From Pantoea sp. (GTDB lineage: Bacteria > Pseudomonadota > Gammaproteobacteria > Enterobacterales > Enterobacteriaceae), in NCBI RefSeq assembly GCF_028283705.1, contig NZ_JAPWKD010000032.1:62001-126000 (forward strand): a DNA stretch of 64,000 bases. The letters are read 5' to 3'. The notes below the pieces were generated by a model. That model was not told the origin of the DNA and did no database searches. It was given only the letters and a program-made list of their open reading frames with translations. Below, one piece after another: positions 58,985-63,049 of this stretch (position 1 is its first letter; every line of letters begins with the position of its first letter). The position numbers were made by a program, and so were the translations under genes.

Positions 58985-59674
58985 TTAGTAGCGGGCAGAG
59001 AAACGATACCCTGTTCCGCGTACGGTTTGTACCATGCGGTCGTGGCCGGAGACCTCCAGCGCTTTACGTAAACGACGGATATGTACATCGACAGTACGAT
59101 CTTCGACATACACATTGGTGCCCCAGACATGGTTCAGCAGCTGTTCGCGGCTGTAAACGCGTTCCGGGTGCGTCATAAAGAAGTGCAGCAGTTTATACTC
59201 GGTCGGCCCCATCTCCAGCGGCGTGGTCTCTGACATCACACGATGCGATGATGGGTCGAGGCTCAGCCCCTGCATCTCAATCACTTCTTCCACTGCCATC
59301 GGTGAAATACGGCGCATCACCGCTTTGATACGGGCCATCAGTTCTTTGGGGGAGAAAGGTTTGGTGATGTAATCATCCGCGCCCACTTCCAGACCACGTA
59401 CGCGATCTTCCTCTTCACCACGCGCTGTCAGCATCATCACCGGGATATCCCGCGTCATGGCTTCACGCTTCAGGTGTTTGATAAACTGGATACCGCTACC
59501 ACCGGGTAACATCCAGTCCAGCAAAATCAAATCTGGCCAGGGTTCAATCAGCTTCCCTACTGCGCTGTCATAATCTTCCGCCTCAATCGGCTGGTAATCG
59601 TTCTGTTCCAGCACGAAACATAACATTTCACGGATGGGAGCTTCGTCTTCCACAACCAAAATGCGCTTAGCCAT
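58985..59674 (-). CDS. phoB: Phosphate regulon response regulator PhoB
   Basis: PhoB activates phosphate-starvation genes by binding Pho boxes. The 229-residue protein equals E. coli in length: receiver domain with Glu9, Asp10 and phospho-acceptor Asp53 ([10 protein letters not shown]), and a C-terminal winged helix (about 130-229; [20 protein letters not shown]). The start was placed at [11 protein letters not shown], eight bases or so after GCAGGAG. A Pho box upstream indicates autoregulation. Confidence 0.98.
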
Positions 59675-59752: not shown

Positions 59753-59868
59753 AAAACCAACGGGTGGTCTGGAGTATAAAAACAGAAATGTGACAGCAGA
59801 AACAGGATTTTTGGCGGGTAGCATACGAATATGCTTCTCAGGTAACTATTAAGAAAAAATGATTTTTC

Positions 59869-59899
59869 CCGGGCCGGGAAGCTAACCTTCCCGACCCGG
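59869..59899 (-). terminator. Terminator after the unknown gene pair
   Basis: A 13-base GC-rich stem with one mismatch (59869-59881 with 59887-59899) follows the second unknown gene. The T-run on the minus strand starts about a dozen bases later, so the fit is imperfect. It separates the pair from the phoB promoter. Confidence 0.6.
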
Positions 59900-59926: not shown

Positions 59927-60700
59927 TTAGCTGCTTATTTCCTTCATCTGCGCCTTCATTTCAGCAAACTCCTCTCCTTTCAGCAAATCATCCCGCAGAT
60001 TCAGGAAAGCCCGTAGCTTCATATTGTTGGCAAATTCCGGCGCGTTTTCCGACAGCGCCCAGGCATCATTCATACCAGCAAAGGACGCCGACGTGGTGGC
60101 TTTTTCAACCACATTTCCTTTGTTGTAAGCGGCGAGAATCACCTGAAAGAAGGTTGCCATAAACTTTCTCACATCACTGGGCCGGAATCCGTGGAGATAA
60201 AACATATGCGCACGTTCAAAAATAACCGGTCCTCCTCCTCGTAGTTCTAATTTTGCCGTGATCATTTTTCCCTTCACTGGTGAAAAAGGGGAATTTTCAA
60301 ACGGCAAAGTATTTATCCCCGAAAAAAAACTAAGCTGTTGCCTTAAACAGGTGAAGTAATCCCGGCTGCTTAATTTTCGCGTAGACGGGACCTGTTCAGC
60401 AGGAATAATAAAAACGCTACCGGCGGGAATTTTCACCTGGCCATGAGAACAGATATCATGCTCGCGACTTTTATCGTAGAGCGCAAAGAGAAATTGATTG
60501 AACTGCTCCGTCGTTATGCCATTGTCCTCCAGCATGTGGGAAAGTGATGCTCCTTCTTTGATACTCTGGTCACTACCAGTTTGCATCCCTGCTTCTGCAT
60601 TGCTAATACTACTGATATTATCAACCACCTGTGCCGCAGAGGCTTTATCGTCCCGTGATAATTTAGCCTCTGGTATTGGGATATTATTAATAGCAAACAT
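59927..60700 (-). CDS. Unknown protein, paralogue of the upstream neighbour (gene B)
   Basis: I do not recognise this 257-residue protein. GAGGG lies six bases before the ATG. No signal peptide or membrane helix is visible. The N-terminal 50 residues are polar and Ser/Ala/Asn-rich; the C-terminal half is probably helical. It is plainly related to the gene 35 bases upstream: both share an RAHxFYLxxFRPxDVxxF block (here about 165-182), a following FFxxIxxA helix, and a closing RDxLLxxxxFxxxKAQM block (about 236-252). It is cotranscribed with that gene. The AT-rich stretches and absence from the E. coli phoB-sbcD junction suggest acquisition. Secreted effector, toxin-like or defence roles are all open. 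Confidence 0.7.
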   Translation of the reverse strand: MFAINNIPIPEAKLSRDDKASAAQVVDNISSISNAEAGMQTGSDQSIKEGASLSHMLEDNGITTEQFNQFLFALYDKSREHDICSHGQVKIPAGSVFIIPAEQVPSTRKLSSRDYFTCLRQQLSFFSGINTLPFENSPFSPVKGKMITAKLELRGGGPVIFERAHMFYLHGFRPSDVRKFMATFFQVILAAYNKGNVVEKATTSASFAGMNDAWALSENAPEFANNMKLRAFLNLRDDLLKGEEFAEMKAQMKEISS

Positions 60701-60735
60701 ATTGATCCCTCATTCTCAAAATTATTGTCCGTTTT

Positions 60736-61653
60736 TTACCTGGGTACGGCGTCAGGTAAATGTTGCGGTGCAGGATGGTCATTTAACTCCATCTGGCTCA
60801 ATAATTGTTCCATCTCCTCGCAGGATTTCGCTTTTTCCGCCATCTGTGCTTTCAGCGCAGAGAACTTATCCGTTGCCAGCAGCTGATCACGCATGCTGAT
60901 AAACTCATCCTGCGTTATATCACCCGCAAATACCGGTGGGACGTCCGCCTGGTCCCAGTAATAATTCATACTCATCAGGGTAGTTATGGCTATGGCTTCA
61001 TCATGGGTTGTGACTTTCTGGCTGGCGGAAATAATGGCATCGAAAAAATCACGCAGGAAAGCGCTCACATCTTTTGGTCGGAAGGCATCAAGATAAAAGA
61101 AATGCGCGCGAGCATTCCCGGGTTCGGCACCCTCAACATAGGGAATTGATATTGTTGTCATTACCCCGTAGTTCGGCAGGCAATTTTCAGCGCGATAATT
61201 AAAATCGGGGTTCAGCACCATCGCTAAAAAATCTTCCCGCAACGAGGCTAAATAGGTCGGAGAGGGGCCAACAACAGGAGGGTGGGCGATAAATACCCAA
61301 CCTGGAGCGCGGTTATAAACCACCGCATCATCGTCTACAGTTCTTCCTCTGGTAGTAATAAACGTTGCGAAAAGCTCAGCAGTATCACCCGCAGGAACGA
61401 CATCGGCCCCAAAAGGCAGTAAGGACGATGTTCTTCCCGTCGCCCTGCCGTAAATCAGTTTTTCATACTCTTCTGGCCCCATCGTGACGGGCGCTTCTGT
61501 GTCGTATTGAGAGGTCGCAGACCCCATACGCTGTGCTGAATTCGCCACCACGACAATATTATCCCCAGCCGCAGAAGCTAAAGCATGGCTATCGGGTGCT
61601 GAACGCATGGCGGAGGTGGAGGTTACAGATTCGCTACGGTTAACAGGAAACAT
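60736..61653 (-). CDS. Unknown protein, paralogue of the downstream neighbour (gene A)
   Basis: I do not recognise this 305-residue protein. It has an excellent AAGGAG ribosome site. The first 50 residues are rich in Ser, Thr, Ala and Asn and low in charge and hydrophobic runs, a composition also seen in type III secreted effectors, but no Hrp box was found upstream. The centre and C-terminus align with gene B: GWVFI versus GSVFI, RAHFFYLDAFRPKDV versus RAHMFYLHGFRPSDV, and RDQLLATDKFSALKAQM versus RDDLLKGEEFAEMKAQM. The tail adds about 30 residues (EEMEQLLSQMELND). First gene of the pair, divergent from sbcD across 178 bases. Confidence 0.7.
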   Translation of the reverse strand: MFPVNRSESVTSTSAMRSAPDSHALASAAGDNIVVVANSAQRMGSATSQYDTEAPVTMGPEEYEKLIYGRATGRTSSLLPFGADVVPAGDTAELFATFITTRGRTVDDDAVVYNRAPGWVFIAHPPVVGPSPTYLASLREDFLAMVLNPDFNYRAENCLPNYGVMTTISIPYVEGAEPGNARAHFFYLDAFRPKDVSAFLRDFFDAIISASQKVTTHDEAIAITTLMSMNYYWDQADVPPVFAGDITQDEFISMRDQLLATDKFSALKAQMAEKAKSCEEMEQLLSQMELNDHPAPQHLPDAVPR

Positions 61654-61794
61654 ATTTATCTCCTTACGTTATCAGTGAGCCTTTATTTAACCTCTGATAT
61701 TTTTCCGCGCTGAATAGTTAACTTCTGAGGAATTGATGATTTTTCCGGCGCATTTGTTCGGCTAATACGCATGTCAGTGGCAGTCCCATCCGTA

Positions 61795-61831: not shown

Positions 61832-63049
61832 ATGCGCATCATTCATACGGCGGACTGGCATCTGGGCCAGTTCTTTTACAGCAAAAGTCGTGCGGCGGAA
61901 CATCAAGCCTTTCTCGACTGGCTGCGCCAGCAAATTGAGCGGCATCAGGTGGATGCACTCATTATCGCCGGTGACCTGTTTGATACCGGTTCACCCCCGA
62001 GTTACGCACGTGAAATGTTTAACCGCTTTGTGGTGGCCTTACAGGCCAGCGGTTGCCAGCTGATTGTGCTGGCCGGTAACCATGATTCGGTAGCCACGCT
62101 GAATGAATCCCGTGAACTGCTCGCCTGCCTGAATACCCAGGTGATCACCAGCGCAACGCCGCAGGGCGAGCAGCAGGTACTGACGCTGAAACAGCGTGAC
62201 GGCTCGCCAGGCGCGGTGCTGTGCGCCATCCCTTATCTGCGTCCACGCGATATTTTGCGCAGCCAGGCCGGACAATCCGGACGGGAAAAACAGCTTTCGC
62301 TGCTGGAAGCCATCGAGCAGCATTATCAGCACTGCTTTGCCGCCGCTGAGGCACAGCGCGCGGCGTTGGGCGGCCAGCTGCCGATTATCGCCACCGGCCA
62401 TCTCACTACCGTGGGGGTGACCAAAAGTGATTCAGTACGCGATATCTATATCGGCACCCTGGATGCCTTCCCGGCCCAGGCCTTTCCCGCCGCGGATTAC
62501 ATCGCCCTCGGCCATATCCATCGTGCACAACGCATTGCCGACCGCGACCAAATTCGCTACAGCGGCTCCCCCATCCCGCTGAGTTTTGATGAGCTGGGTC
62601 GGGATAAAAGTGTGTTCCTGCTTGATTTCAGCACAGGCCTCGATGCCGTGACACCGCTGACCATCCCACTGTTTCAGCCGATGCAAATGCTGAAAGGTTC
62701 GCTGGCAGAGATTGAACAGCAGCTGGCCTCCTTTAAAAATAGTGATGCATCACAACCGGTGTGGCTGGACATTGAAATCACCACTCAGGAACATCTCAGC
62801 GATCTGCAACGACGGATTGAGCAACTGACAGAAGGCTTACCGGTGGAAGTGCTACTGGTCCGCCGCAGCCGTGAGCAACGTAGCCGCAGCCTGGCACGGC
62901 GGGATAATGAAACCCTGAGCGAATTGCAGGTTGAAGAGGTATTTGCACGTCGTCTGGCGCTGGAAGAAGATCTGGATACGGAACAGGCTGCGCGGCTCAC
63001 CCAACTGTTTCGCACCACCCTTGCCGCGCTGGAGAACCCTTCTGCATGA
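61832..63049 (+). CDS. sbcD: Exonuclease subunit SbcD
   Basis: SbcD is the Mre11-like nuclease subunit of SbcCD, which cuts DNA hairpins and protein-blocked ends. The 405-residue protein has the metallophosphoesterase motifs HTADWHLG (about 5-12), [15 protein letters not shown] (about 81-87), a later GHLTT and [14 protein letters not shown] precedes the ATG. The stop overlaps the sbcC start by four bases (ATGA), indicating coupling. It is divergent from gene A instead of phoB as in E. coli. Confidence 0.97.

What the first reader, a model, noticed from the sequence alone, without database searches (positions are those of the whole stretch)
59927..61653. Two tandem paralogous genes of unknown function inserted between phoB and sbcD
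The 305- and 257-residue products share an RAHxFYLxxFRPxDVxxF block and a terminal RDxLLxxxxFxxxKAQM block, so they arose by duplication and diverged strongly. They occupy a junction where E. coli has phoB directly divergent from sbcD, have their own ribosome sites and a terminator, and look AT-richer in parts than the flanks. I match them to no known family. The polar, Ser/Thr-rich N-termini starting MFxxN could be secretion signals. Function is open; this is the best candidate here for something undescribed.
Basis: partly seen in the sequence, partly recalled or inferred. Interest (0 to 1): 0.75.

Follow-up and report, generated by a model that had tools for sequence, protein, structure and literature searches.

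The report
Orphan paralogue pair beside phoB
Two related protein genes that match no family we could search sit in a normally empty gap between two conserved genes; one other species of the genus was found to share the family, so this is a rare, real, uncharacterised accessory gene pair whose job is still open.

Summary
Two intact, co-oriented genes (305 and 257 aa) lie between phoB and sbcD. Their last ~115 residues are homologous (35%, E 8e-21); the middle parts not detectably. They have the lowest GC3 of 43 ORFs tabulated from the window. No credible match appeared in Pfam, NCBIfam, PHROGs, PADLOC, PDB sequences, plasmids, phages or viral contigs. In 61 genomes of the genus, one other carries the family (one copy, 76% identical, same junction); samples of family, order and class added none. 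In 39 of 40 other junctions fetched there is no such gene. The closest relative, G012, keeps the flanks but lacks everything between two 11-bp direct repeats, and the tree makes this a loss. The 305-aa orthologues are under purifying selection (dN/dS 0.32).

Function is not shown. The predicted folds are too weak to use. Best reading: a lineage-restricted orphan family, an exported-effector role being about as likely as an unspecified cytosolic one. Real and undescribed here, but of an ordinary kind.

The parts
60736..61653 (-). gene for the 305-aa protein (first gene of the pair)
   Evidence: ORF; orthologue in G013 at 76% identity, dN/dS 0.32
59927..60700 (-). gene for the 257-aa protein (second gene; C-terminal paralogue of the first)
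   Evidence: ORF; BLASTP E 8e-21
60829..61179 (-). conserved C-terminal domain of the 305-aa protein (about residues 159-275)
59933..60283 (-). conserved C-terminal domain of the 257-aa protein (about residues 140-256)
61660..61665 (-). ribosome-binding site of the 305-aa gene (AAGGAG)
   Evidence: read from the sequence
60707..60711 (-). ribosome-binding site of the 257-aa gene (GAGGG)
   Evidence: read from the sequence
59853..59899 (-). terminator-like hairpin (13 pairs, 59869-59899) with a T run nine bases after the stem
   Evidence: z -4.7; a shorter form is listed; a similar hairpin is in G013 (sequence)
59859..59869 (+). left copy of the 11-bp direct repeat ATGATTTTTCC bounding the cassette
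61736..61746 (+). right copy of the 11-bp direct repeat ATGATTTTTCC
58985..59674 (-). phoB (flanking gene, not part of the cassette)
   Evidence: gene name recalled
61832..63049 (+). sbcD (flanking gene, not part of the cassette)
   Evidence: gene name recalled

Best explanation
A two-gene accessory cassette of a lineage-restricted (orphan) protein family. Supported by the data: a member sat at this junction in the common ancestor of three close species; G013 now has only the 305-aa gene, G000 has both, and G012 lost everything between two 11-bp direct repeats; the 305-aa gene is kept by purifying selection. Inferred: the cassette came in horizontally from an unsampled source (low GC3, no relatives found), and the duplication predates the G000-G013 split. 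Inferred and much less sure: each protein has a flexible, Ser-rich, Leu-poor export-type N-terminal region followed by a conserved mixed alpha/beta C-terminal domain, and works as an exported effector against a host or competitor, expressed as a small operon. History about 0.8; effector role about 0.3.
For: Two intact ORFs with ribosome sites and a terminator-like hairpin; dN/dS 0.32 for the 305-aa orthologues, with dS near that of sbcD (0.44 against 0.35), which fits vertical descent; same junction in G013, no such gene in 39 of 40 other junctions fetched; one repeat copy and both flanks in G012; tree with G000 and G012 together and G013 outside. For export: the first 50 residues hold 10 and 7 Ser with 1 Leu each; Ser 7 or more with Leu 1 or fewer (cut-offs chosen after seeing the table) occurs in 2 of 43 ORFs, just these two; no hydrophobic segment, highest 19-residue Kyte-Doolittle mean 0.95 and 1.04; residues 1-65 are less conserved between orthologues (65%) than residues 66-275 (79-85%).
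Against: G000 has no secretin over the type III cut-off, and its one export-gate match is below the cut-off and lies beside an flhB-like gene, so flagellar (gene name recalled). Only 1 of the 12 genus genomes with such a secretin has the family. Both proteins meet 2 of 3 recalled type III signal rules, while 5 other ORFs of 43 meet all three. No hrp box, Pho box or PhoP box by recalled consensus in the junction, and no promoter-like site on the minus strand. Disordered N-termini are Ser-rich for many reasons. The folds are too weak to inform. Purifying selection was measured for the 305-aa gene only.
Confidence: 0.35

Rival explanations
1. Cytosolic accessory proteins (for example phage defence, stress or regulation) with no export; the Ser-rich N-terminus is only a flexible tail.
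For: No non-flagellar type III system detected in the own genome; the adjacent genes read as phoB and sbcD; no membrane span or Sec-like segment by hydropathy.
Against: No PADLOC family for any of 3 members at E up to 5 and no Pfam or NCBIfam family near its cut-off.
Confidence: 0.35
2. Very diverged members of a known family, whose relationship profiles from three sequences cannot show.
For: Only three sequences were found to build a profile from, and the orthologues already differ at 24% of residues; both weak models give the same order of elements in the C-terminal part, though each alignment held both sequences.
Against: Nothing near a cut-off in the four profile libraries and no PDB sequence at E up to 10. 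Foldseek best E in PDB is 0.33, on a poor model.
Confidence: 0.2
3. Cargo of a small mobile element: the 11-bp direct repeats are a target-site duplication and G012 shows the empty site.
For: Identical 11-bp repeats at the ends of the cassette and one copy in G012; a 14-nt inverted pair, 86% complementary, lies at 59840-59853 (outside the left repeat) and 61710-61723 (inside the right one) (pair I8).
Against: Neither protein matches a transposase or integrase family; G012 groups with G000 and the carrier G013 lies outside, so G012 reads as a loss; the T-rich repeat is a plausible slip site; no further protein copies in G000. The ends themselves were not searched elsewhere.
Confidence: 0.08
4. 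Chance ORFs, not genes.
For: Low GC3; no expression data.
Against: Purifying selection on the 305-aa gene, homology between the two, ribosome sites, hairpin.
Confidence: 0.02

Closest known systems
Lineage-restricted (orphan, taxonomically restricted) bacterial genes
   Same: Found in 2 of 61 genomes of the genus and nowhere credible in the other samples; low GC; at a conserved junction; no family match.
   Different: A tandem pair of strongly diverged paralogues of 257 and 305 aa, one of them with measurable purifying selection.
Type III secretion effectors (as a functional class; features recalled)
   Same: Ser-rich, Leu-poor, hydrophilic N-terminus and a separate C-terminal domain; patchy distribution; one carrier (G013) has two type III secretins over the cut-off.
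   Different: No non-flagellar type III system detected in the window's own genome; the cassette holds only these two genes; no regulatory box found; not all signal rules met.

Membership tests
Type III secretion effector | genome encodes a non-flagellar type III system | tested here: not met
   G000: secretin match below the cut-off only; export-gate match below the cut-off beside an flhB-like gene. The assembly is a draft of 34 contigs, so a lost plasmid is not excluded.
Type III secretion effector | N-terminal signal of recalled classical composition | tested here: inconclusive
   2 of 3 rules met by each protein; all three met by 5 other ORFs of 43.
Type III secretion effector | translocation into a host cell | not testable with these tools
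   needs an experiment
Orphan (lineage-restricted) gene family | no homologue outside a narrow lineage | tested here: met
   samples of the larger groups, not every genome.
Orphan (lineage-restricted) gene family | real coding sequence | tested here: met
   dN/dS 0.32 over 296 codons for the 305-aa gene; for the 257-aa gene only through homology to it.
Anti-phage defence system | match to a described defence protein family | tested here: not met
   no PADLOC family for any of 3 members at E up to 5.
Transposable element cargo | transposase or integrase, or further copies of the element | tested here: inconclusive
   no such family match for the two proteins and no further protein copy in G000, but the DNA ends were not searched elsewhere.
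Any known fold | structural match | tested here: inconclusive

The most novel reading that the evidence does not exclude
An undescribed family of exported effector proteins with a new C-terminal alpha/beta fold, kept as a diverging pair in one species, present singly in a second and precisely deleted in a third, delivered by a route other than a dedicated type III system (for example the flagellar export apparatus, or a type VI system, whose sheath gene is present in all three species).
Probability: 0.12. Interest if true: 0.55.

Novelty: new member of a known kind. Interest (0 to 1): 0.3.

Why it matters
As a protein family it is undescribed in the libraries searched here, and the three-species series (two genes, one gene, none at the same junction) is a clean case of gain, divergence and repeat-mediated loss of an accessory gene. 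If the proteins prove to be exported, they would be a new effector family. As it stands it is one of many orphan families that bacterial genomes carry.

Tried and rejected
Family libraries: Pfam and NCBIfam on the two window proteins, PHROGs and PADLOC on 3 members and PDB sequences with the profile gave chance-level rows or none (best E 0.022, PHROG 15444).

Wider searches: genome-contig scans with each protein found 17 and 34 pattern stretches and no relative (this method reaches close relatives only); viral contigs 532 pattern stretches and no relative with each of two alignments; plasmids none for either protein; phages none for the 305-aa protein (the 257-aa protein was not run against phages). 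In E. coli genomes 4 of 5426 matched, only over 43-44 bases before phoB. Rfam: none at gathering score. A 3-kb stretch of G013 around a secretin, sent to the plasmid collection in the hope of naming that genome, had no match.

Weak genome hits: 13.2-19.8 bits, 9.4-17.5 bits. I opened five of them: L058 (an ORF beside a type III ATPase-like gene in G027), L062 (a Met/Ser-rich ORF), L056 (another frame of a MocR-like regulator gene), L073 (antisense to a ribB-like gene) and L072 (antisense to an rpsA-like gene); these gene names are recalled from the translations. L007, L008, L009, L057, L074 and L076 were only re-scored; L059, L060 and L075 were not examined. I take all as chance.

Folds: Foldseek and VIA on the 257-aa model gave nothing standing out; the 305-aa model was not searched because its mean pLDDT is 34.9. 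Absence of a match there says nothing about the fold.

Regulatory boxes (hrp, Pho, PhoP; consensus recalled) were not found in the junction. Papers: four searches; I saw listings with the starts of abstracts and opened no paper; none held phoB, sbcD, intergenic and insertion together (0 papers). That is the only search behind any statement about print.

Script slips: one search left the window's own row empty and was redone; the phoB query was out of frame, so gap lengths there can be off by about 2 bases; one search had a wrong frame and was redone.

Full report
What is there. The window carries phoB (58985-59674, minus) and sbcD (61832-63049, plus; both names recalled), and between them two minus-strand genes, 60736-61653 (305 aa) and 59927-60700 (257 aa). 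They are 35 bases apart, each with a ribosome site. Downstream lies a strong hairpin (66 nt folded at -31.6 kcal/mol against a shuffle mean of -17.4, z -4.7); its T run starts nine bases after the stem, so I call it terminator-like. No promoter-like site was listed on the minus strand. GC3 is 0.49 and 0.46, the lowest two of 43 ORFs tabulated. The 43 were picked by me by eye from the 69 ORFs of at least 150 aa: I dropped most overlapping frames and also a few shorter ORFs that do not overlap, kept a few overlapping ones, took starts as listed, and cut phoB to its inner start.

Paralogy. BLASTP aligns residues 141-254 of the shorter with 160-273 of the longer protein at 35% identity, E 8e-21. 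Shuffle tests: 0 of 2000 as good for the C-terminal stretch, 24 of 2000 for the first 50 residues, 1218 of 2000 for the middle. So the C-terminal domain is shared, the very start perhaps, the middle not detectably.

Distribution. In G000, the genome of the window, these are the only two places found. In the genus sample, 2 of 61 genomes have a match at E 0.001: G000 and G013, the latter with one copy, 76% identical over residues 1-295. A profile of the three sequences rang in 7 of the same 61 at E 1; the five besides G000 and G013 scored 9.4-17.5 bits, the best (G035, E 0.003) being a wrong frame of another gene. Larger samples: family, 392 genomes with the 257-aa protein, own only (G013 seems not to have been drawn, since this protein finds its copy at E 5e-18); order, 394, own plus 3 weak rows; class, 369, own plus 1 weak row; relatives, 296, with the C-terminal profile, G000, G013 and 5 weak rows. 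The weak rows of these larger samples scored 13.2-19.8 bits. The five weak rows that I opened, from all these calls, were unrelated or antisense frames. Plasmids, phages and viral contigs gave nothing. The genus is not named by any search; that it is Pantoea-like is my recollection.

The junction. sbcD was found in 56 of 61 genus genomes. I fetched the phoB-sbcD junction of 40 of the 55 other genomes. In 37 the gap is 190-203 bases, in G025 251, in G012 281, and in G013 1370, the only one with a member. In the window it is 2157 bases.

Gain or loss. In G000 the cassette is bounded by ATGATTTTTCC at 59859-59869 and 61736-61746. G013 has the same two sites, the left one with one more T; G012 has one such site, with more Ts, and both flanks that the three species share, and no gene between; the flank sequences are absent from the four other genomes aligned. 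A tree of 7 genomes from 17.8 kb on the sbcD side puts G012 with G000 and G013 outside (support 1.000; identities 95.0% for G000-G012, 91.0% for G000-G013). The simplest history is presence in the ancestor of the three and loss in G012 by deletion between the short repeats. The paralogues (35%) are far more diverged than the 305-aa orthologues (76%), so I infer that the duplication is older than the split and that G013 lost the 257-aa gene; fast divergence after a later duplication is not excluded. Independent gains are possible but need more events.

Selection. The 305-aa orthologues give dN 0.141, dS 0.439, ratio 0.32 over 296 codons; sbcD in the same pair 0.022, 0.353, ratio 0.06; phoB shows no amino-acid change. 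So the gene is coding and maintained, but loosely. Part by part the ratio lies between 0.27 and 0.35; identity is lowest in residues 1-65 (65%) and in the last 21 codons compared (52%). The 257-aa gene has no orthologue to measure.

Function. No segment is hydrophobic enough for a membrane span or a Sec signal. The first 50 residues are Ser-rich and Leu-poor in both, which is what type III signals look like by recollection, but each protein meets 2 of the 3 rules I recalled, and 5 other ORFs of 43 met all three. The genome has an export gate beside an flhB-like gene and a type VI sheath gene (present in all three species, so it does not discriminate), but no secretin over the type III cut-off, whereas G013 has two. 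In the genus, 12 of 61 genomes pass that cut-off; 1 of the 12 carries the family and 1 of the other 49 does. The type III reading therefore has no genomic association behind it. I put an exported effector of some kind at about 0.3, a cytosolic accessory protein at about 0.35 spread over many roles, and a diverged known family at about 0.2.

Verdict. What it found is a real, narrow, uncharacterised gene family with a readable history, but nothing yet sets it apart from the many orphan families of bacterial genomes.

Noticed in passing
G013 contig C3, about 179355-180734 and 272372-273826: Two non-flagellar type III secretins over the family cut-off on one contig of the other carrier, G013; none over it in G000 or G012.
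   Followed up: partly
window 59800-59855: About 55 bases between phoB and the cassette, with a small inverted repeat, are shared by G000, G012 and G013 but absent from the four other junctions aligned.
   Followed up: no
G021:C4:119024-120213 and G033:C4:2869630-2870813: sbcD appears in two pieces in two genomes of the genus, which may be frameshifts or assembly errors.
   Followed up: no
L040 (G025), phoB-sbcD gap: This junction is 251 bases instead of about 195, without a member of the family.
   Followed up: no
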